The notes under the pieces are model-generated. The model searched no databases. It saw nothing but the letters and a program-made list of their open reading frames with translations, and was not told where the DNA came from. This document shows positions 48,961 through 64,000 of a DNA stretch of 64,000 nt, piece by piece. This DNA is from Myxococcus landrumus (GTDB taxonomy: Bacteria; Myxococcota; Myxococcia; Myxococcales; Myxococcaceae): NCBI RefSeq assembly GCF_017301635.1, contig NZ_CP071091.1, positions 6,336,001-6,400,000 of the forward strand, in the 5' to 3' direction. A program made the position numbers and the translations under genes. How positions within the stretch are numbered: the first letter of the stretch is position 1; the number at the start of each line of letters is the position of its first letter.

Positions 48961-51393
48961 TCATCGGGCAGGAGGCCCACGCATCGGTCGAGGAGTCGTG
49001 ACCCGGACGCCTGACACCTGACGACGGCGCTGGCGCAACAAGGCCGCGACGCCGATGAGCAGGACCCACGCGGTCGCGGCCCCTGTCGGAGACGCGCCGC
49101 AGCCGCCGCAGCCCACGTCCAGCGCGGTGGGGCCTCGGACCTGGAAGCCGGTGTCCGGAGACTTGGGGCCCGGCGTGCCAGACTCGCTGTTGAGCATGGA
49201 CGCGGACACGGCATGCGCGCCGGAAGTCAGCGCGCTCTCGGCCGCCAGCGTGTGACGGAATGCCCCCGTCGCGTCCGCGACGACCGTGGCCACGCGAGCC
49301 CCATCGACATCCAGGGAGACAGTGGCACCGGGCTGCGCCACGCCCGCGAACAACGGTGTCGGGTCCACCAGCTCGCCTTCGGCGGGGACCACGAGCACGG
49401 GCACCTCGCGCACCACTCCCGAGCCAGCATCCCCCGAGCCCGCGTCCGGCCCGGAGGTCCCCGCATCCGAGCCCCCCGCATCCGGAGTCGGCGAGCCCGC
49501 GTCTGGGTCTGGGAGGACGACCTCGAAGCGGGTGTCGGGAGAGCTCGCGCTGGAGTTGTCATCCACGTCATGGCCGTGGGCATTGACCTTGTGAGGACCC
49601 ACGGCGAGCGGAGAGTTGGCGGGGATGTCGTAGCGGAAGCGGCCCATCGAGTCCGCGACGACGATGGCCTCTTCGCGGTTGTCCACATACAGGCCCACCG
49701 TCCTCGCATTGCCGGCGACCCCCGCGATGTAGGGCGTGGGTCCAGTCACCTCACCCTCGGCGGGGACCACGATGACGGGAATCTGGAGGCCCGCGTCCGC
49801 CGCCTGCGACTGGGCGTCGAAGCCCACCTGTGAGGAGGGGCGGCTGTAGGCCCCCATGCTCTCGGAGACCGCCGTCACCACGTGGGTGCCGACATCCAGC
49901 TCGGGAACCGGAGGGTCGAGCACCGTGACGAAGTCTCCTGTCGTCCCCGCGCCGACCTCGGCGACCCGGACGCCATCGACGCTGATGATGACGCGCATGC
50001 CCGGGTCCGCCACGCCGCGGATGGTGGGACGGGTCGACACAGTGGTGTTGACGACGGGCTCGGTGATGACCGGCGTGGTGGGCGTTTCGTAGGGGAAGAT
50101 GAACTGCTTCATCTCGCCGATGGCGCCCACCGTGGCGCCGTAGCTGCCACCCGACGAGCCCGCCGTTCCGGGGGCCCCACCCGCGTGTGAGCCGGGGCAC
50201 GTCACGGACTTGCCGTGGAGCAGCAGGACACCGCCCGCGCCACCTCCGCCGGGCCCCGTCTGGAAGGAGGAGCTCGGCGCATTGCCTCCCGCGCCGCCCT
50301 GGACGAGGGCCTGGGTGCAGTCCAACGAGCCCGTGGTGCGCACGATGACCGCGCCCCCCGCGCCACCTCCGCCCGCGCCATCCCCACCGCCCGAGGCCGC
50401 CGCCGCCGCGCCGTTCGCGGAGAAGGTCCCTCCCCCGCCGACAGAGCGCGCACGCACCATCACCACGCCCCCACCCGCGCCTCCGCTCGAACCATCGCCG
50501 GAGTCACCCTCTCCCGCGCCACCGCCACCCCCCATGAGGATGGAATAGACAATCGTGTACCCCATCTCCACGCCCCCCTGCCCTCCCATGTCTCGCATGC
50601 CATCCGTGGGAGCCGTCCTTCCGCCAACACCTCCCACGCCGCGATGCCCACCACCACCGCCGCCCGCGTCCTTGCAGACACCTCCACCGCCCGCGTTGAC
50701 GAGGTTGGCTCGACCGGAGGCGGAGCCATAGCGATCCACCACGAGTCCCTCGCCCTTGAAGGCGCCGCCCTGGGACGTGGGGAGGTCAGCCCCGGTGCAG
50801 TTGGTGCGACTCGTGTTCTGGGTGAAGGCACCGCCTCGGAAGCCCGCGCCATCGGCGTTGATGGAGCCGTCGTTCGTCACCGCGCCACTGGCGAGGAACG
50901 CGACGATGCCGCCGCTGCTCCCATCCCAGGGAGGTGCCACGAGCGCGCCGGACGAGGCCACGCTCACGGTGGTGTATTCGGGCACCGTGACAGCCTGAGA
51001 GCCGGGGGCGTCGTAGTTGTTGATGAGCGGCGCGGAGAGCTGAATCACCATCGGGCTGCCCGCGGTGACAGAGGACACCCGAGCCATCTCCCAGCTCCCC
51101 ACGCTACCGGGGCTCGTCGGGCTCGTGCCACCCGAGGGGGTGCTGGAAGCGAAGCCCTGCGTCTGGTGGATGAGCAGCAGACTGCCCACGGCGGGCGCGG
51201 TGACGGCCTCTACCGAGAGCACGCGAGCCCCCCGCGACGCACCCAATGGCATACGCATCGCCAGGTTGATGGTGCGCCGGCTGTTGACGGTGAGCGGACC
51301 GTCGCGTCCGGTTCCCAGGCCAAACGAATCCAGCTCGGCCTGCGCGGCGGAAGACAGCAACAAGAGGACGAGAACCAGGGGGGGCAGACGCAT
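48961..51393 (-). CDS. AgmC-like surface protein with Ig-like repeats and MYXO-CTERM-type anchor
   Basis: 810 residues. A signal peptide (VLVLLLLSSAAQAEL) precedes an N-terminal domain of 190 residues; a Gly-rich region follows (about 230-420; blocks such as GGGGGGHRGVGGVGGR and AAAASGGGDGAGGGGAGG). Three Ig-like repeats follow, each opening with a VPAEGEV.-type or VI.EP..N-type strand (PVIVVPAEGEVTGPTPYIAGV, LVVPAEGELVDPTPLFAGV). A Pro/Asp/Ser/Gly linker leads to the end CGGCGASPTGAATAWVLLIG followed by Arg, which matches the MYXO-CTERM signal (Cys-rich motif, helix, basic tail). The arrangement resembles AgmC, associated with adventurous gliding motility. A gliding role is by similarity only. 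Confidence 0.72.
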   Translation of the reverse strand: MRLPPLVLVLLLLSSAAQAELDSFGLGTGRDGPLTVNSRRTINLAMRMPLGASRGARVLSVEAVTAPAVGSLLLIHQTQGFASSTPSGGTSPTSPGSVGSWEMARVSSVTAGSPMVIQLSAPLINNYDAPGSQAVTVPEYTTVSVASSGALVAPPWDGSSGGIVAFLASGAVTNDGSINADGAGFRGGAFTQNTSRTNCTGADLPTSQGGAFKGEGLVVDRYGSASGRANLVNAGGGGVCKDAGGGGGGHRGVGGVGGRTAPTDGMRDMGGQGGVEMGYTIVYSILMGGGGGAGEGDSGDGSSGGAGGGVVMVRARSVGGGGTFSANGAAAAASGGGDGAGGGGAGGAVIVRTTGSLDCTQALVQGGAGGNAPSSSFQTGPGGGGAGGVLLLHGKSVTCPGSHAGGAPGTAGSSGGSYGATVGAIGEMKQFIFPYETPTTPVITEPVVNTTVSTRPTIRGVADPGMRVIISVDGVRVAEVGAGTTGDFVTVLDPPVPELDVGTHVVTAVSESMGAYSRPSSQVGFDAQSQAADAGLQIPVIVVPAEGEVTGPTPYIAGVAGNARTVGLYVDNREEAIVVADSMGRFRYDIPANSPLAVGPHKVNAHGHDVDDNSSASSPDTRFEVVLPDPDAGSPTPDAGGSDAGTSGPDAGSGDAGSGVVREVPVLVVPAEGELVDPTPLFAGVAQPGATVSLDVDGARVATVVADATGAFRHTLAAESALTSGAHAVSASMLNSESGTPGPKSPDTGFQVRGPTALDVGCGGCGASPTGAATAWVLLIGVAALLRQRRRQVSGVRVTTPRPMRGPPAR

Positions 51394-54864: not shown

Positions 54865-55263
54865 ATGATCTTCAGACGGCATTGCTTCAAGACGCTGTTG
54901 ATTCTCTCCTCCCTTCTATTCGCCAGCAGTTGCAAGGAGTCGGAGGACAAATCCGCAACCCAAGCCCAAAACTCCAGCGCCACTGTCAGCGTGGTCAGTG
55001 AGCATCGATTTCAACCCACGAGCAAGCCCATCGCACTCAAGGCTCTCGGCCAAGACTGCTCATTGTCCGGGCCAGGAGAATGCGCCTCCGGCGTCTGCGT
55101 GCACACAGGGGCCGCGCGCAACACCGGCTACGTCTGTAGTCAGCGATGCGGTCAGGGAACCCCGTGCCCCACAGGCTGGCGCTGCACGCGCACCCACCCA
55201 GTCGACCCAGATGCGGCTCTCTGTCTTCCGAGCGAAGACGCCCCCAGCCATCCCGCTCAGTGA
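54865..55263 (+). CDS. Cys-rich lipoprotein preceding the RHS gene
   Basis: 132 residues from the ATG at 54865. The lipobox is LLFASSCKES. The C-terminal 75 residues hold eight Cys in the pattern DCSLSGPGECASGVCVHTG, YVCSQRCGQGTPCPTGWRC and LCLPS, a small disulphide-rich module common in myxobacterial lipoproteins. The RHS gene starts 24 bp after its stop, so it is very probably cotranscribed and may anchor or help export the RHS protein. Confidence 0.72.
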   Translation: MIFRRHCFKTLLILSSLLFASSCKESEDKSATQAQNSSATVSVVSEHRFQPTSKPIALKALGQDCSLSGPGECASGVCVHTGAARNTGYVCSQRCGQGTPCPTGWRCTRTHPVDPDAALCLPSEDAPSHPAQ

Positions 55264-55287: not shown

Positions 55288-58200
55288 ATGAACCCACTCT
55301 CGGGATTCCTCTCCGGGCAACTACGTTGCCTACTCCTAGCTCTACTCCTTCTACCGGCACTGAGTGAGGCAGGCGGACAGTTCCAGGTCTGCAGTCCAGC
55401 CAGTGACGGCTACAACCACGTTTGGATCTGTGCGTGTGGCACGAACTCCTCCGGGCAAGCCGCTTCGATGTACTGCGACGCACTGAACCAATCGTCATGC
55501 AGTGGAGGCAACTGTCTCTACCCCCCATCGGGGAGACTCGAGGACATTGGATACTATCCCTGTTGCCTGACGGGGCTGTATTGCCCCTCTGGGACCGAGG
55601 CCAACAGCATCCTCAGTGGTGCCGAGACCTGTGACGAGCCCTGGGCGGACGACTGCAAGATCGGTGAAGACTGCCGTGGGTCGGACGGCTACTGCAGCAA
55701 GGGAACGTGCAAAGGCAGCGTTGGCGGCATCAGCACGCCGAGTGGCGCGTACAGCGCCCCAGAGACACACTGCGAAGTCACCATCACCAACGCCTGCGAC
55801 GATGATGACGAGGGCGAAGACAACATGTGCGAGACACTGGGTGGCGCCCCCCACGCGGGCGATCCAGTCCTTCTCGGAAGTGGCTCCACCAGGCATGACG
55901 TCACAGATGTCGAACTACCTGGCGCTCTCGGTGCACTGACGTTCAAGCGGAGCTACTTCTCGAGCTCCGAGAAGTGGGCGCTCGGGGATGGCCTGCTCAG
56001 CGCCGCGGGCACCGTGATTCCCGCTCCTTTCGGTACCTCGCCAGCACATCCGGTTTCGTTGCTCTGGTGGCATAGCTTCTACAGCTTCGTCCACCCGCAA
56101 ACCACGACCCCCAACAACGAGGTGTGGCATGTGAGGCAAGGCAGCGGAAAGCTCCTCGACTTCACGGGCTGCCAGCGCTCGCCTTCGACCTGTGTGGCCC
56201 GCCCTGCCCCACTCTCTGGGGAGACCACCGGACGCCTGGTCTGGGAGAGCACGGGTCCGACCAGTGGCTACTTCGTCCTGCATTTGCCTGGTGTGGGCAG
56301 GCTCATCTACGCGGACGTCTGGACTCCGCAGGGCGGCTCGACAACCGACGTGCGCTACTTCCTCACCCGCATTGAGGACGCGCGCCAACTCACCCCGTCA
56401 GGGCAAGCACGAGTCCAGGCCACGCTGACGTACGCGCCTCCACCAAATCTCAACTGTCCAGGACTGAGCGCTGGTGCCAACCCGGGAGTCCCCTACCTCG
56501 CGACAGTCGAGAACTTGGAAGGGATGAGGCTCCGGCTCGAGTACAAGCGCGTCCTGGCCTATCAACCTGGACAGCCAGAACAGTGTGTCCTGTCACGAGT
56601 GTTGGTGGAGTCCTCTTCGGCTCCGACTCCGGCGGTCCCCCTCGTCGAGTACACCTATCGGAAGAACCAGGCTGGCTCCGAGCAGGCAGGCCTCATCGAG
56701 AGTGCGCTGAATCTCCATCAAAACGGAGCCGTGGAGAGCTATTCCTACCCAGACCCGGTGACTGGCACTGGGCAGTGGCAGCTCCTTCGGAACAACATGG
56801 TCATCGCCACCCACGCCTCGACCAAGGGGCGCGTTACGAGTGACTACTCCCCCAAACGAGGGAAGCGGGGCAGTGGGAGTCTGATGCTTCTTCCAGATAT
56901 GTTCCCAGTCGCCTGCACCAATGATTCATCACCTGCATGCAAGAAGACCAAGACGAACTACGCACAGGTCTATGCTTTCGATGGGAAAGGATGGGGAACG
57001 GCGTCCAACTATCTTTCACAGTATCTCCATGTCTACGACATGGAGCAGACCTCATTTGCGCGTCCTTGGAGAATCCGCCGCGTCACTCGCCCCTGCCCCG
57101 AGGCCGCATCTTGCAATCAGACACAAGAGTTCATCTGGCATCAGTTCAGCGATGGCCCTGCTGTCACGCTCGCCGAGAAGGACTTCGAGGACGGATGGAC
57201 TGTTCGCGAGTGGGAAGGTCCTCCTGATGGAGGCGTTGGGGGTTATGCGGACCTGAAGCGAGTCCATGTGGGGGCGGAGAACCGTGATGGTGGGAGCGCA
57301 TTGGAGACCGTGGCCTTCGAGTACACTCCTGGGACAGCTGGCACGGGGCTCTTGGTAGGCGAGCGGCTTCGAACAGAGGAGCGCCAAGACTCGGTCCTCG
57401 TCCCGAGTGGCGAAGCAGTGACACGCTATATCCATGATCCCGCCACCAACCGACTGAAGGCTACGATTCGGAGTGGCTATACCCAGGCCCTGACTGGAAC
57501 CACCTGGGATACAGTTCCGGTCTTGAAACATGTCGGCACCTTCTACTTCACGCGACATGCATGCTCGGGCGGGTCGACGGAAGATGCCTTGGGACGTGTC
57601 CTGGAGGTGCATGGCCCCTGCTGGGTCGACAGTCCCACCGCAACCGACTGCTCCGCTTCCCTCAATGCCCAGGTCCCCATCACCCAGTATCATTATTGGC
57701 CTGCGGGGACTTCGGGGCACGACGCACAGCGACTCCAGAAGGTGGTTCGTTTTCCGAATACAGGGGGAGGAACGTCCTGCATCGGGCAACAGGGTCTTGC
57801 GACGACGTACGCGGACTATGACTTGTGGGGTCAACCGCGAGTCGTCACGGACGCCAATGGCGTGAGCACCACCTACACCTACGAGATGAATCGAGTCACC
57901 TCGATCTCCACGCAGGGAGCCACCTGGAACTACATCTACGAAAAGGGGGCCCTGCTCTACGTGCAGTCACCTCGTGGAGACTACGAGATGTTCTGCCGAC
58001 GCGACAATGGAGGCTCTGGCTCGCACTGTGTCGGTAACTGGTACGACGACATCCGCGTCCGGAGCAAGATTCCCTATCCAGGAGGACCTGCCTATGAGTT
58101 CATCCGATACGAACGAGCTGCGGATGGCCTTCTTGGTTCAGAGACCTACCTGAGCGAGTATTCACACGGATACCAGGAACTCCGTGCGAAATACTATCAG

Positions 58201-61200
58201 GCCAACCTGGATGGCATGCCCAGCCATGAGCGCTCTGGTGGAGGCATTGATTTCAATCGAGGTTATCACGCCACACCTCGGCTCTTTGATGGTGCTGAGC
58301 GATTGGTGGGTATTGGGGCGCCCTACTTGCTGTCACCCTCCCTCTGTGACGGGTTGGCGCAGGATGGACGCCCTGTTTCCCCACTCTGCGCTGCGCTCAG
58401 CTATGATCGCGCGAATCGCCTGACGGGGCTCGAGCAGTATCCAGAGGTCGGAACTCGAACCAACGGCACGCGCTCCTGCTTCTCCCATGATGGCCACGGC
58501 AACGTCCACACCGTGCGAAGTGGATGCCCGGCCGCCAGTGGTGCGGTGGGCGATTGCTCAGCTTGTACGCAGCCTCTCTCGACGTATCGACATGATGACT
58601 TCGGAAATCTCATCGAAGCCTCCTTGCCTTGGTTGGGAGGAAGCGGAAGGACGCGATTCAGTCACGATGCGATGGGGCAAGTGCGTGCGAAGCAGACTCC
58701 TCAGATGGAGCTCGGCACGGAGCACCTTGCCTATGCCTATGACTCACTAGGTAGATTGCTCTCAACAGCACGCATCGTGGGCGGCAGCATCCCGACCACT
58801 GAACTGCTCTACACACTAGGGTATGACCAGTCCGCTACGCCGCATACCAGTTGTCCCCAGCCTGCGAATACTCAAGGTCGCCTGCTGTTCCGAAACGATT
58901 CCTTCGGACAGACCTGGTACTCGTATGATGGTCACGGGAGAGTCGTTCGGGAGATCAGGGCAAGACGCGGCCCGACAGGCACCTTCTCCTGCCCAGCGGA
59001 CTCCCCGGGCAGCACCCTGCATACGACGTACAGCTACTCATCCGCGGGTGACCTGAGCTCGATTGAGTATCCCTACGGGCACAAAGTCACGTACGAGTAC
59101 CGGAAGCACTCAGGTACGACGATCCCCTCGGACCGAGTGGGGGGCGTTCAAGTCGCACGCTGGAACGGTACGGGCTGGACGAATCTCGCCTCCATCTCCA
59201 ACGTTGAATGGGAGCCCTATGGCGGTGTGCGCACGTATCAGATCAATCCGCCAGGTGCGGCCCAGCCTGTCACGGTGGATTATTTCCCCCACTATTACAC
59301 CCAGTCCCCGCCCAGCTCCTGCGCGCTCGACGCGGGTGGGTATCCAGGCTCGTCAGATTTGTCGGGACGCACGCGCGGCATCCTCGTCTCCTCCGGGAGC
59401 TTTGCCCCCTCAAGCGGCACAGGAGACATCTACAAGCGTTTCTACACGTGGAAGGGAGACCAGATCATCCGCACGGATACCTGCCTCCTGGGGGCGACCA
59501 CTCCCGCCATCGAAGAGTTCACCTACGATGGTCTCCTCCGGCTCTCCAGCGCGACTCGACCTGCCGGGAACCTCGCGGCCACGGGTGGTGCATTCGAATC
59601 TCGTCGCTACACGTATGATGGCCGAGGAAATCGACTGACCGAGGAAGTCGATGGCCAGATGCACACCCTAGCGCATGGCACGGGAGGATTCGTGGATAGG
59701 CTGGCGAGCCGCACTGGAGCTGGAGTCAATTCGGTATTGAACCTCCAGTTCACCTACGATGCCGACGGTCGCGCCAAGGAGAAACTCGGGGCTATCGTGG
59801 ACGGAGTCCCCATGCACAAGATGGAGTTCACCTTGGGCCCTTCGGCCAATGGTGGCAACGAGACCGTCTTCCGCTCTGTCAAGGTCAATGGAAGTACCTA
59901 TGAGTACTTCTATGACGCGTTCAACAGACGTCGGCTCAAGCGGTATCCGAGCACAGCGGAGGACGAGTTCTTCTATGACTTGTCGCACCATCTGCTTGTG
60001 GACCGAGGCAACCCGAGCTCAACACCACCGCAGGGAGGGTACTCCCATTTCGTCGATGACACATATGTGTGGCTTGGGAATCGCCCAGTCATGGTGGTCA
60101 GAGGCCGCCTGACTGCGCAGATGGAGCGTGACAGTAGTCCGACTAGCGATTGCGGTCGAACGGGTGAGTCTGCGACTTGCGGGGTCTACTTCCCCGTCAC
60201 GGACATTCTGGGCAAGCCCAGCTTGATGCTTGACCATGCGGGCAAGGTCTCGGGGGCAGCGGACTATGAACCGTTTGGAGATGTCAATCGTGTCTCCTTG
60301 CCCGCGGAAACACCCCACCCCTATCCGGGCAGTCTGAATACAACCCTAGCGACCATGTCGCAGGCAACAACCAGTACTCAGGTGAAAACCCGCTTCCGTG
60401 CGCAATTCGGCCACGTTGACATCAAGGACGCCGCAGACTTCGTCTCGCTCGTTGATGGAATAACAGGAATCCCCTATGGGCCGACAATCTCACAGGAAGG
60501 AAACGGACGCTTCTGGAGTCACTGGGTCCAACCAACAGCCTCACAGCTTCGGATTGACTTCATCTCAGATGCCCCCCCCTCTAGCTGTGGGACCTGCGAC
60601 CCCACCCAAGCCTCGTGCGCGATCAAGTGTGGGCCTGCAGCCGGCGTCGTCCTTGAGGGCTACGAGTACCAGCGATTCCAGACCGGAGCAGAGCCGTTCT
60701 GGACACCACTGCGATTTCCTGGGCAATACCATGATCTAGAAACGGGTCTCTTCGAGAACTGGAACCGTTATTATGACCCAAGTACCGGCAGGTATCTTCA
60801 GCCAGAGCCAATGCTTCTGGAGTCAGTGTTTTCCCATCAAGAGGCCATCAGTAGCCGCGCTACCCCTCCCTACGACTACGCACTAGGGAATCCACACTAC
60901 TATTCTGACCCCAATGGACAATTCGTCATTGTCATCCCCTTTGGGATAGCAGCCGCAGAAGCTGCAGCTGCAGCTGCGGCTGGAACAGCAGCAGTCGGCG
61001 GACTTGCCTGGTGCTTCGGCACAAATTGCCTCGAGAACATCCGCTGGCCCTGGTCTTCGCCAGTTCCCAATGTTCCAGTCGAGACAGCGCCTCTCTGCCG
61101 AGATAACGACGATGGCGACGGCGATGATGAACTCAGCAAAGACCGACGCAGCCCCCTGGAGCAGTGCCGAGACGCCTGCGCAGCTTCCAGACAATCCGGC

Positions 61201-61326
61201 TTTCCACATGCTTGGGATAGATTCTGCGATAAACTCAAGTCACCCTTGAGAGGCAAATGCAAGAACGAAGGACTTAGCAGTGAGCAGGCGTGCCAACACT
61301 GGTGTTTCAATTACTTCGGAAATTAA
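55288..61326 (+). CDS. Secreted RHS-repeat polymorphic toxin
   Basis: 2012 residues. A signal peptide (LLLALLLLPALSEAG) comes first, then a Cys-rich region of about 160 residues. A DUF6531-type start follows (GDPVLLGSGSTRHDVTDVEL). About 1650 residues of YD/RHS repeats form the shell (e.g. YDLWGQPRVVTDANGVSTTY). The RHS-core end at about 1830-1875 has RYYDPSTGRYLQPEPM and YALGNPHYYSDPNGQ. The tip (about 1878-2012) begins with an Ala-rich hydrophobic helix (AAEAAAAAAAGTAAVGGLAW) and ends with a Cys-rich stretch: EQCRDACAAS, FCDKLKSPLRGKC and EQACQHWCFNYFGN. The tip is probably the toxin; I could not match it to a known one. It ends in TAA directly followed by an immunity-gene ATG. Confidence 0.93.
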   Translation: MNPLSGFLSGQLRCLLLALLLLPALSEAGGQFQVCSPASDGYNHVWICACGTNSSGQAASMYCDALNQSSCSGGNCLYPPSGRLEDIGYYPCCLTGLYCPSGTEANSILSGAETCDEPWADDCKIGEDCRGSDGYCSKGTCKGSVGGISTPSGAYSAPETHCEVTITNACDDDDEGEDNMCETLGGAPHAGDPVLLGSGSTRHDVTDVELPGALGALTFKRSYFSSSEKWALGDGLLSAAGTVIPAPFGTSPAHPVSLLWWHSFYSFVHPQTTTPNNEVWHVRQGSGKLLDFTGCQRSPSTCVARPAPLSGETTGRLVWESTGPTSGYFVLHLPGVGRLIYADVWTPQGGSTTDVRYFLTRIEDARQLTPSGQARVQATLTYAPPPNLNCPGLSAGANPGVPYLATVENLEGMRLRLEYKRVLAYQPGQPEQCVLSRVLVESSSAPTPAVPLVEYTYRKNQAGSEQAGLIESALNLHQNGAVESYSYPDPVTGTGQWQLLRNNMVIATHASTKGRVTSDYSPKRGKRGSGSLMLLPDMFPVACTNDSSPACKKTKTNYAQVYAFDGKGWGTASNYLSQYLHVYDMEQTSFARPWRIRRVTRPCPEAASCNQTQEFIWHQFSDGPAVTLAEKDFEDGWTVREWEGPPDGGVGGYADLKRVHVGAENRDGGSALETVAFEYTPGTAGTGLLVGERLRTEERQDSVLVPSGEAVTRYIHDPATNRLKATIRSGYTQALTGTTWDTVPVLKHVGTFYFTRHACSGGSTEDALGRVLEVHGPCWVDSPTATDCSASLNAQVPITQYHYWPAGTSGHDAQRLQKVVRFPNTGGGTSCIGQQGLATTYADYDLWGQPRVVTDANGVSTTYTYEMNRVTSISTQGATWNYIYEKGALLYVQSPRGDYEMFCRRDNGGSGSHCVGNWYDDIRVRSKIPYPGGPAYEFIRYERAADGLLGSETYLSEYSHGYQELRAKYYQANLDGMPSHERSGGGIDFNRGYHATPRLFDGAERLVGIGAPYLLSPSLCDGLAQDGRPVSPLCAALSYDRANRLTGLEQYPEVGTRTNGTRSCFSHDGHGNVHTVRSGCPAASGAVGDCSACTQPLSTYRHDDFGNLIEASLPWLGGSGRTRFSHDAMGQVRAKQTPQMELGTEHLAYAYDSLGRLLSTARIVGGSIPTTELLYTLGYDQSATPHTSCPQPANTQGRLLFRNDSFGQTWYSYDGHGRVVREIRARRGPTGTFSCPADSPGSTLHTTYSYSSAGDLSSIEYPYGHKVTYEYRKHSGTTIPSDRVGGVQVARWNGTGWTNLASISNVEWEPYGGVRTYQINPPGAAQPVTVDYFPHYYTQSPPSSCALDAGGYPGSSDLSGRTRGILVSSGSFAPSSGTGDIYKRFYTWKGDQIIRTDTCLLGATTPAIEEFTYDGLLRLSSATRPAGNLAATGGAFESRRYTYDGRGNRLTEEVDGQMHTLAHGTGGFVDRLASRTGAGVNSVLNLQFTYDADGRAKEKLGAIVDGVPMHKMEFTLGPSANGGNETVFRSVKVNGSTYEYFYDAFNRRRLKRYPSTAEDEFFYDLSHHLLVDRGNPSSTPPQGGYSHFVDDTYVWLGNRPVMVVRGRLTAQMERDSSPTSDCGRTGESATCGVYFPVTDILGKPSLMLDHAGKVSGAADYEPFGDVNRVSLPAETPHPYPGSLNTTLATMSQATTSTQVKTRFRAQFGHVDIKDAADFVSLVDGITGIPYGPTISQEGNGRFWSHWVQPTASQLRIDFISDAPPSSCGTCDPTQASCAIKCGPAAGVVLEGYEYQRFQTGAEPFWTPLRFPGQYHDLETGLFENWNRYYDPSTGRYLQPEPMLLESVFSHQEAISSRATPPYDYALGNPHYYSDPNGQFVIVIPFGIAAAEAAAAAAAGTAAVGGLAWCFGTNCLENIRWPWSSPVPNVPVETAPLCRDNDDGDGDDELSKDRRSPLEQCRDACAASRQSGFPHAWDRFCDKLKSPLRGKCKNEGLSSEQACQHWCFNYFGN
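59041..59920 (+). repeat. RHS core segment, source copy of the downstream direct repeat
   Basis: This part of the RHS gene (from SAGDLSSIEYPYGHK to about YEYFYDA) is repeated at 62544-63423 with a constant offset of 3503 bp and only scattered base changes, without indels. See the truncated copy at 62544. The repeat could recombine to exchange toxin tips. Confidence 0.88.
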
Positions 61327-61803
61327 ATGCGTCCTCTCTTTGCATCCAGGCGTTATAGATGGGCCGACCGACCCGGCTGGATTACAGTTCGATTCTTCAC
61401 CCCCTTCCGCTCCGGATCTTCCTACAAATGCCCATTCAGCATCCATGGCATTGGCTCCGAAAGAATAGAAAGATACGGCAGCGGAATAGACTCGCTCCAG
61501 GCCGTAATAATGGCATTCGAGCGACTGCGGGTCTTCCTCGTCCCCATTGCCGACAAGATCATTTTCAATGAAACACTGGGAACAGACATTCCTCGCCCGA
61601 TTCCAAACAGCTATGGACCCGCGAAGGAAGCTCGCTTCACTGCATTGATCGAACGAGAGCTCGACCGAATGCTCCGTTCCTACGGCGAAGACCCAAAGCC
61701 GGGTCGAGCAAGAGATCGACAACGACTACTAGCGCGCCGGGAGGAACTCCTCGAACTGCGCAAGGAGAAGAAGCCGAGCAGGAAGACCAAGCCTCATCAT
61801 TGA
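61327..61803 (+). CDS. Putative RHS-tip immunity protein (DUF6968-like), copy 1
   Basis: 158 residues starting directly after the RHS stop (TAA then ATG), as expected for a toxin-immunity pair. The N-terminal half has RSGSSYKCPFSIHGIG and GIDSLQAVIMAFERLRVFL; that 'Y.CPF.I.G......G.DS.QA...A' order resembles the DUF6968 family. No signal peptide or helix is seen, so it would act in the cytoplasm and neutralise incoming tip. The C-terminus is a charged helix (LLARREELLELRKEKKPSR). A near-duplicate lies at 61922. The immunity role is inferred from position. Confidence 0.72.
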   Translation: MRPLFASRRYRWADRPGWITVRFFTPFRSGSSYKCPFSIHGIGSERIERYGSGIDSLQAVIMAFERLRVFLVPIADKIIFNETLGTDIPRPIPNSYGPAKEARFTALIERELDRMLRSYGEDPKPGRARDRQRLLARREELLELRKEKKPSRKTKPHH

Positions 61804-61874: not shown

Positions 61875-61921
61875 GCCTGAGTCAAGCCCCGAACTGGTGT
61901 TTCAACTATTTCGGAGACTAG

Positions 61922-62398
61922 ATGCGCCCTCTCATAGCATCCAGGCGATACAAGTGGACCGACCAGCCAGGATGGATCACGGCTCGACTCTTCACCCCTT
62001 TCCGCTCTGGTTCTTCCTACAAATGCCAGTTCAGTATTCAGGGCATCGGCCGTTCAAAAATAGAAGGATACGCAAAGGGAACAGACTCATTTCAGGCAGT
62101 GATGATGGCATTTGAAGGACTGCGCGTGTTCCTCCTCCCCATTGCCGACAAAGTCACCTTCGATGGGATTCTTGGATCAGATATTTCTCGTCCGATTCCA
62201 AGCAGTTACGGCCCTGAAAAGGAAGCACATTTCATTGCTTTGATTGAACGTGAGCTTGACCGAATGCTCCGCTCGCATGGCGAAGACCCAAAGCCGATGC
62301 AAGCAAGAGATCGAGAACGACTACTAGCGCGCCGGGAGGAACTCCTCGAACTGCGCAAGGAGAAGAAGCCGAGCAGGAAGACCAAGCCTCATCATTGA
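61922..62398 (+). CDS. Putative RHS-tip immunity protein (DUF6968-like), copy 2
   Basis: 158 residues, aligned without gaps to copy 1; by eye about 34 residues differ, nearly all in the first 130, and the last 28 or so are identical. The diversified positions include RSKIEGYAKGTDSFQAV against SERIERYGSGIDSLQAV. It follows a remnant of the RHS end (…CFNYFGD then TAG directly before the ATG), with GGAG five bases ahead. It probably recognises a different toxin tip that was once attached to an RHS core; the core itself is gone. Confidence 0.7.
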   Translation: MRPLIASRRYKWTDQPGWITARLFTPFRSGSSYKCQFSIQGIGRSKIEGYAKGTDSFQAVMMAFEGLRVFLLPIADKVTFDGILGSDISRPIPSSYGPEKEAHFIALIERELDRMLRSHGEDPKPMQARDRERLLARREELLELRKEKKPSRKTKPHH

Positions 62399-62469: not shown

Positions 62470-62543
62470 GCCTGAGTCAAGCCCCGAATCGGGTGTATCT
62501 GATTCAGAAGGGAGGAAGGCTCCTTGTTGACATCATCCATCCA

Positions 62544-64000
62544 TCCGCGGGTGACCTGAGCTCGATTGAGTATCCCTACGGGCACAAAGTTACGTACGAG
62601 TACCGGAAGCATCCAGGTACGACGATCCCCTCGGACCGAGTGAGGGGCGTTCAAGTCGCACGCTGGAACGGTACGGGCTGGACGAATCTCGCCTCCATCT
62701 CCAACGTTGAATGGGAGCCCTATGGCGGTGTGCGCACGTATCAGATCAATCCGCCAGGTGCGGCCCAGCCTGTCACGGTGGATTATTTCCCCCACTATTA
62801 CACCCAGTCCCCGCCCAGCTCCTGCGCGCTCGATGCTGGAGGATATCCAGGCTCGTCAGATTTGTCGGGACGCACGCGCGGCATCCTCGTCTCCTCCGGG
62901 AGCTTTGCCCCCTCAAGCGGCACAGGAGACATCTACAAGCGTTTCTATACGTGGAAGGGAGACCAGATCATCCGCACGGATACCTGCCTCCTGGGGGCGA
63001 CCACTCCCGCCATCGAAGAGTTCACCTACGATGGTCTCCTCCGGCTCTCCAGCGCGACTCGACCTGCCGGGAACCTCGCGGCCACGGGTGGTGCATTCGA
63101 ATCTCGTCGCTACACGTATGATGGCCGAGGAAATCGACTGACCGAGGAAGTCGATGGCCAGATGCACACCCTAGCGCATGGCACGGGAGGATTCGTGGAC
63201 AGGCTGGCGGGCCGCACTGGAGCTGGAGTCAATTCGGTATTGAACCTCCAGTTCACCTACGATGCCGACGGTCGCGCCAAGGAGAAACTCGGGGCTATCG
63301 TGGACGGAGTCCCCACGCACAAGATGGAGTTCACCTTGGGCCCTTCGGCCAATGGTGGCAACGAGACCGTCTTCCGCTCTGTCAAGGTCAATGGAAGTAC
63401 CTATGAGTACTTCTATGATGCGTTCAACAGGCGCCGGCTCAAGCGATATCCGAGCACAGCAGAGGACGAATTCTTTTACGACACGTCACACCTCTTACTC
63501 GTGGACCGAGGCAACCCCAGCGCGATTCCGCCCGCTGGAGGATACGGACACTATGTCGACGACACCTACGTGTGGCTCGGAGACCGTCCGGTCATGGTGG
63601 TGAGAGGTCGACTGACGGCGCAGATGGAGAGAGACAGTAGTCCGACGGGGGATTGTGGTCGAAACGGAGAACCCGCGACCTGCGGGGTCTACTTCCCCGT
63701 CACGGACATGTTGGGCAAGCCGGTCCTAATGTTGGACCAAGCCGGCAAGGTCACCGGAGCTGCGGACTACGAGCCCTTCGGCCACGTCAATCGCGTCAGT
63801 CAGCCGGCGGCAACCCCTCATCCCCATCCGGAGAACGCGAATCTTACGCTCGCAACCTTCGAACAGCCGTCCAGCAGTTCCTCTGTCCGAACCCGGTTCC
63901 GCGCACTGTTTGGACAGGTTGACACGGTTGACATGGATGACTTCGTGTCACTGGTGGATGCAGACACGAGCGCAACACAAGGCCCGACCATCTCTCAACC
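62544..64000 (+). pseudogene. 5'-truncated RHS core copy (displaced fragment, runs off window)
   Basis: The frame reads SAGDLSSIEYPYGHK onward and has no stop from 62454 to 64000. It matches the main RHS gene from 59041, at a fixed 3503-bp offset and nearly identical to about 63423. Beyond that it diverges in sequence but keeps the RHS reading (DDTYVWLGDRPVMVV, VYFPVTDMLGKPVLML, AADYEPFGHVNRV). It lacks a signal peptide, the N-terminal half and a credible start: only a GTG at 62493 with no Shine-Dalgarno sequence. It is therefore a displaced tip cassette or rhs remnant. It continues beyond 64000, where a different tip is expected. Confidence 0.82.

What the first reader, a model, noticed from the sequence alone, without database searches (positions are those of the whole stretch)
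55288..61803. RHS toxin with an unrecognised Cys-rich tip and an abutting immunity gene
The tip, about 135 residues, begins with an Ala-rich hydrophobic helix and ends with a C-x3-C ... C ... C ... C-x3-C array. I cannot match it to a known nuclease, deaminase or ADP-ribosylating tip. The immunity candidate starts at the base after the stop. A hydrophobic segment plus disulphides suggests a membrane-acting or disulphide-stabilised toxin. The lipoprotein upstream and signal peptide suggest Sec export.
Basis: partly seen in the sequence, partly recalled or inferred. Interest (0 to 1): 0.7.

Follow-up and report, generated by a model that had tools for sequence, protein, structure and literature searches.

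The report
Cys-rich RHS toxin tip with immunity
A soil bacterium of the myxobacterial family carries a large surface protein tipped with a small, uncatalogued cysteine-stapled domain that comparative genomics marks as a toxin used against neighbouring cells, followed at once by its likely antidote gene; the same toxin-antidote pair recurs in dozens of related genomes, mostly as small stand-alone lipoproteins.

Summary
A 2012-residue Sec-type RHS protein ends in a six-Cys tip, and a gene starts at the base after its stop codon. That gene is DUF6968 (PF22302), which has no known function. The tip matches nothing in Pfam, NCBIfam, PADLOC, PHROGs or PDB. Its last 56-70 residues define a Cys-rich domain confined to myxobacteria: 43 full-core copies, of which only three are RHS tips and most are short lipoproteins. 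41 of the 43 have a DUF6968 gene adjacent; the two exceptions are a contig end and a copy without a start codon. DUF6968 genes survive beside broken or missing toxins at about 19 loci, while no intact toxin lacks one. At this chromosomal site relatives carry the same RHS with unrelated tips. Together this is good comparative evidence for a polymorphic toxin-immunity pair. The hydrophobic segment is a shared pre-tip linker, not the toxin. DUF6968 has no signal peptide or membrane helix, which argues for a cytoplasmic target rather than a membrane-acting toxin. No conserved catalytic residue is visible, so a non-enzymatic, disulphide-stapled helical binder is the favoured but untested mechanism. 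Toxicity itself is not shown. This is a new family within a known kind of system.

The parts
54865..55263 (+). Cys-rich lipoprotein (lipobox-like FASSC) encoded just upstream of the RHS gene; conserved RHS partner
   Evidence: homologues immediately upstream of the RHS genes of G008 (84% identity) and G005 (47%) at the same chromosomal site; no family hit
55288..61326 (+). RHS polymorphic-toxin protein, 2012 aa, signal sequence, DUF6531, RHS repeats, RHS-associated core
60919..61089 (+). hydrophobic Ala/Gly-rich pre-tip segment ending in WPW (shared linker, not the toxin core)
   Evidence: 46% identical segment in front of an unrelated tip in G005 (L006)
61114..61323 (+). Cys-rich toxin core (RHS residues 1943-2012): C-x3-C...C...C...C-x3-C, predicted four-helix domain
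   Evidence: alignment A5 of 36 members; AlphaFold2 model pLDDT 79; no Pfam/NCBIfam/PADLOC/PHROG/PDB hit
61327..61803 (+). immunity protein, DUF6968 (PF22302), 158 aa, no signal peptide
   Evidence: Pfam E 1.5e-10; adjacent to 41 of 43 full-core tips
61896..61921 (+). remnant of a second Cys-rich tip (NWCFNYFGD, stop codon)
   Evidence: sequence; (weak profile hit)
61922..62398 (+). second DUF6968 immunity gene (orphan; 78% identical protein, dN/dS 0.19 to copy 1)
62540..64000 (+). orphan RHS core fragment (98% identical DNA to 59039 onward); continues to L003:2809 and ends in a different tip

Best explanation
The last ~70 residues of the RHS protein are the toxin domain of an exported, contact-delivered polymorphic toxin, and the abutting DUF6968 gene is its immunity gene. 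Proposed sequence of events: (1) the RHS protein and its lipoprotein partner are exported by Sec and sit at the cell surface (inferred from the signal sequences); (2) on contact the C-terminal tip is delivered into a neighbour (inferred from RHS biology); (3) the tip, a compact four-helix domain stapled by up to three disulphides (C1-C6, C2-C5 and C3-C4 proposed; C2-C5 supported by joint loss in one lineage), acts in the cytoplasm by binding a target rather than by catalysis (inferred: DUF6968 carries no export signal, and no polar residue is conserved throughout the family); (4) kin survive because cytoplasmic DUF6968 binds the tip. In most relatives the same core and the same immunity occur as a small lipoprotein plus DUF6968, i.e. 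the cassette moves between two delivery chassis. My estimate: about 0.8 for a toxin-immunity pair, about 0.35 for a cytoplasmic non-enzymatic binder.
For: Tip swapping: at the same site (after the citrate-synthase-like gene) G008 and G005 have the same lipoprotein and RHS chassis but unrelated HExxH tips. Pairing: profile searches with the Cys core and, independently, with PF22302 ring at the same places; 41 of 43 full-core tips have a DUF6968-like gene adjacent, the exceptions being a contig end (L041) and a copy without a start codon (L015); all 27 sampled partners match PF22302. Asymmetric decay: DUF6968 is intact beside visibly broken or deleted tips at 13 loci (including copy 2 in this window) and without any recognisable tip at about six more, versus no intact tip lacking DUF6968. 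Orphan DUF6968 copies remain under purifying selection (dN/dS 0.19-0.25). One syntenic site shows pair, immunity-only and empty states in different species. Orphan-cassette array in the window itself. No invariant residue other than Cys in 36 members.
Against: No toxicity or binding data. A cytoplasmic immunity protein sits awkwardly with a disulphide-rich domain unless the domain refolds or works reduced. Some family branches are retained at one syntenic site over two genera, less mobile than typical polymorphic toxins. The tip model is only moderately confident (pLDDT 79, pTM 0.62) and has no significant fold match. RHS delivery and processing were not tested.
Confidence: 0.7

Rival explanations
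1. Membrane-active toxin: a compact saposin-like or amoebapore-like disulphide helical bundle that permeabilises the neighbour's membrane.
For: Six Cys in saposin-like order (two near the N-terminus, one, one, two near the C-terminus), four predicted helices; saposin D appears among the very weak fold matches; exported context.
Against: The saposin matches are not significant (Foldseek E 7-9, VIA Z 2.2). Spacing is much shorter than in saposins. The hydrophobic segment is linker, not core. DUF6968 has no signal peptide or TM helix, whereas immunity to pore formers is normally in the inner membrane (general knowledge of colicins).
Confidence: 0.15
2. Enzymatic toxin in which catalysis uses Cys or residues not conserved across the whole family (a very divergent nuclease, deaminase, thiol enzyme or similar), neutralised in the cytoplasm by DUF6968.
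For: Most studied myxobacterial lipoprotein toxins (SitA) are cytoplasmic nucleases (PMC8546572); DUF6968 is predicted cytoplasmic with a dsRBD/HPF-like fold that could mask or mimic a nucleic acid.
Against: No profile match to any toxin enzyme family; no invariant polar residue, only two Cys invariant in 36 members; core of only ~56 residues.
Confidence: 0.2
3. Non-toxic recognition or adhesion domain: the Cys-rich lipoprotein and DUF6968 form a signalling or self-recognition pair and the RHS merely captured the domain.
For: Most copies are small lipoproteins, and some are kept at one syntenic site in Myxococcus-like and Corallococcus genomes.
Against: RHS tip position is occupied by unrelated toxin-like tips in relatives; one-sided decay of the Cys protein with retained DUF6968, even at the syntenic site; orphan cassettes in arrays.
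Confidence: 0.12

Closest known systems
Sec-exported RHS/WapA-type polymorphic toxins; in myxobacteria the kin-discrimination proteins Rhs4 and Rhs5 (reviewed in PMC10433427)
   Same: Very large protein with signal sequence, RHS repeats, RHS-associated core, exchangeable C-terminal tip, downstream immunity gene, orphan tip cassettes; not PAAR-linked
   Different: Tip and immunity families are uncatalogued; delivery and toxicity untested here; Rhs4/5 are about 4000 aa
SitA/SitI lipoprotein toxins delivered by outer membrane exchange (PMC5562445, PMC8546572)
   Same: The stand-alone relatives are lipoproteins with a C-terminal toxin-like domain and an adjacent gene for a cytoplasmic immunity-like protein, in myxobacteria; one Archangium pair lies beside a SitA5 gene (NF050093)
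   Different: No ~375-aa escort domain and no SitA model hit; Cys core instead of a nuclease; no known SitB partner
DUF6968 (Pfam PF22302)
   Same: The immunity protein and all 27 sampled partners match it
   Different: Pfam assigns no function; the role as immunity to this Cys-rich domain is inferred here; no paper in the held library mentions it
Saposin-like proteins and CX3C alpha-hairpinins (fold analogies only)
   Same: Order of six Cys and helical disulphide-stapled design
   Different: No significant sequence or fold match

Membership tests
RHS polymorphic toxin | RHS/YD repeats and RHS-associated core | tested here: met
   PF05593 E 3e-19, TIGR03696 E 4e-13
RHS polymorphic toxin | C-terminal tip exchanged between otherwise similar chassis | tested here: met
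   G008 and G005 orthologues at the same site carry unrelated HExxH tips
RHS polymorphic toxin | cognate immunity gene directly downstream | tested here: met
   DUF6968 starts at the base after the stop codon; conserved pairing
RHS polymorphic toxin | tip is toxic and the downstream gene protects | not testable with these tools
   needs a growth assay
SitA lipoprotein toxins (considered for the stand-alone relatives) | SitA escort domain | tested here: not met
   no NCBIfam SitA hit for two stand-alone members, while a neighbouring gene scored E 5.7e-101
SitA lipoprotein toxins (considered for the stand-alone relatives) | lipoprotein signal sequence | tested here: met
   lipobox such as LSGC, LLAC or LLSC in most stand-alone members
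SitA lipoprotein toxins (considered for the stand-alone relatives) | transfer by outer membrane exchange | not testable with these tools
   needs mixed-culture transfer assays
DUF6968 (PF22302) | profile match above gathering score | tested here: met
   41.3 bits against a cut-off of 27
Saposin-like membrane-active proteins | saposin fold | tested here: inconclusive
   Foldseek E 7-9, VIA Z 2.2

The most novel reading that the evidence does not exclude
A new toxin class: a ~56-residue, non-enzymatic, disulphide-stapled helical domain that kills by binding a cytoplasmic target, is shuttled between two delivery chassis (surface RHS proteins and small outer-membrane lipoproteins), and is neutralised by DUF6968, which gives that unnamed family its first function.
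Probability: 0.35. Interest if true: 0.7.

Novelty: new variant of a known kind. Interest (0 to 1): 0.5.

Why it matters
It gives a testable function (immunity) to DUF6968, adds an uncatalogued toxin domain that no current library detects, and shows one toxin-immunity cassette used in RHS proteins and in lipoproteins of the same bacterial family. If the domain really is a disulphide-stapled binder acting in the cytoplasm, it would widen the kinds of activity known for interbacterial toxins and pose a direct question of how it survives a reducing compartment.

Tried and rejected
Pfam, NCBIfam, PADLOC, PHROGs and PDB sequence searches with the tip: nothing; the weak PDB profile hits to Veronica hederifolia trypsin inhibitor (E 2.6-3.3) were discarded as chance. 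Fold search of the tip: no significant match (saposin D, RTEL1 HHD2 and Csm rows are noise level). The DUF6968 model resembles dsRBD/HPF-like folds (VIA Z up to 6.4, Foldseek E > 0.1), too weak to infer RNA binding. Two GTDB contig scans: the first (single protein) found nothing; the second (alignment A4) found five myxobacterial loci only, which named Hyalangium, Corallococcus and Archangium hosts. Profile hits outside the family at phylum level were fragments with stop codons or E near 0.01, apart from one frameshifted copy in the same order (L041), so I treat the domain as restricted to myxobacteria in the genomes searched. L056 matched weakly without DUF6968 and was left out.

Full report
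What is there. The ORF at 55288-61326 encodes a 2012-residue RHS protein with a signal sequence, DUF6531, RHS repeats and an RHS-associated core ending near residue 1878. The last 70 residues (61114-61323) carry C-x3-C...C...C...C-x3-C. A 158-residue ORF starts at the base after the stop codon and matches DUF6968, PF22302, E 1.5e-10. The tip matches no Pfam, NCBIfam, PADLOC, PHROG or PDB sequence.

Right after the immunity gene comes a 26-nt remnant of a second Cys-rich tip (NWCFNYFGD-stop), a second DUF6968 gene (61922-62398; 78% identical, dN/dS 0.19 to copy 1), the same ~90-nt trailer again, and an RHS core fragment 98% identical to 59039 onward that leads into a different, JAB-like (HTHP) tip with its own lipoprotein gene and an IS66-like element beyond the window. 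This is the usual anatomy of RHS tip replacement with orphan cassettes.

A family of Cys-rich proteins. The tip has a 57% identical relative at the end of another RHS protein (G017) and weaker relatives that are not RHS proteins. A profile (A1) finds copies in 35 of 96 genomes of the bacterial family and almost nothing elsewhere in the phylum. Of 43 full-core copies, three are RHS tips (this window, G017, G045); most others are short proteins with a lipoprotein or Sec signal. Named hosts include Hyalangium, Corallococcus and Archangium. Within 36 aligned members only C1 and C3 are invariant, the other four Cys are nearly so, and no polar residue is conserved throughout. C2 and C5 are lost together in two related loci (L021, L042), which supports a C2-C5 bond, although one inherited event may explain both.

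DUF6968 is the constant partner. Searching independently with PF22302 rings at the same places. In all, 41 of 43 full-core tips have a DUF6968-like gene adjacent; it lies downstream on the same strand except in two Archangium genomes, where the two genes converge. The exceptions are a contig end (L041) and a copy that has lost its start codon (L015). All 27 sampled partners, including the divergent 'DWRPKL' type, match PF22302.

Evidence for toxin and immunity. (a) Tip swapping: at the same chromosomal site, after a citrate-synthase-like gene, G008 and G005 carry the same lipoprotein and RHS chassis with unrelated HExxH tips, and G009 has lost lipoprotein and RHS but kept a (now frameshifted) DUF6968. 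(b) One-sided decay: DUF6968 is intact beside visibly broken or deleted tips at 13 loci (L014, L017, L020, L034, L054, L057, L058, L059, L090, L092, L095, L096 and copy 2 in this window), and without any recognisable tip at about six more (L079, L081, L082, L094, L153, L159), while no intact tip lacks it. With equal chances, 13 to 0 has one-sided probability about 1e-4; the loci are not all independent. (c) Orphan DUF6968 genes stay under purifying selection. (d) Even the more conserved lipoprotein branch shows pair, immunity-only and empty states at one syntenic site.

Anatomy of the tip. The hydrophobic Ala-rich segment is not specific to this toxin: a 46% identical stretch precedes an unrelated tip in G005, and the stand-alone relatives lack it. 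The core is predicted as four short helices (pLDDT 79). Its fold has no significant match. The Cys order resembles saposins, but the match is at noise level.

How it most likely works. Shown: exported RHS architecture, modular tip, constant partner, one-sided decay. Inferred: surface display and contact delivery as for other myxobacterial RHS toxins (PMC10433427); action in the cytoplasm, because DUF6968 has no export signal or membrane helix; binding rather than catalysis, because no catalytic residue set is conserved. The difficulty is that disulphides are not expected to last in the cytoplasm. Either the core works when reduced or metal-bound, or it is kinetically protected, or DUF6968 acts otherwise than as a classical immunity protein. 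The rivals (pore former, divergent enzyme, non-toxic recognition domain) are listed with their tests.

Novelty. Polymorphic RHS toxins and SitA-like lipoprotein toxins are known kinds (PMC10433427, PMC5562445, PMC8546572). The toxin domain, its pairing with DUF6968, and its use in both chassis were not found in the libraries, nor in the papers searched; only an open-access subset of the literature was searched.

Noticed in passing
L126 (G008) and L127 (G005), same chromosomal site as the window's RHS: RHS orthologues with HExxH metallopeptidase-like tips; in G008 the overlapping downstream gene encodes a Cys-rich lipoprotein that resembles the lipoprotein upstream of RHS, a possible periplasmic or outer-membrane immunity protein.
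   Followed up: partly
L003:494-3539 (continues from window 62540-64000): Orphan RHS fragment with a JAB/DUF4329-like HTHP tip and a downstream lipoprotein gene, followed by IS66-like transposase genes.
   Followed up: partly
L040 and L055 (Archangium-like genomes G101 and G102): Cys-rich protein and DUF6968 are convergent, overlapping at their stop codons; in L055 a SitA5-family toxin gene (NF050093, E 5.7e-101) starts about 105 nt beyond DUF6968.
   Followed up: partly
L062, L064, L065: DUF6968 proteins with a C-terminal extension of about 110 residues or more and no Cys core; in L064 and L065 a small Cys-rich lipoprotein-like ORF lies upstream. DUF6968 may serve other toxins too.
   Followed up: no
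window 61327-61803 (model me74b57bd3925): DUF6968 is predicted as a four-stranded sheet on a long helix, weakly similar to dsRBD, HPF/protein Y and Rv1738/Rv2632c folds (VIA Z 5-6).
   Followed up: partly
stand-alone relatives, e.g. L026, L036, L051: A short C-x-x-N-P-x-x-C motif (such as FCALNPEGCPPP) recurs between lipobox and Cys core and may be an export or display signal.
   Followed up: no
window 48961-51393 (-): Gly-rich secreted protein with a C-terminal Cys-Gly plus TM helix plus Arg-rich tail that looks like a MYXO-CTERM sorting signal.
   Followed up: no
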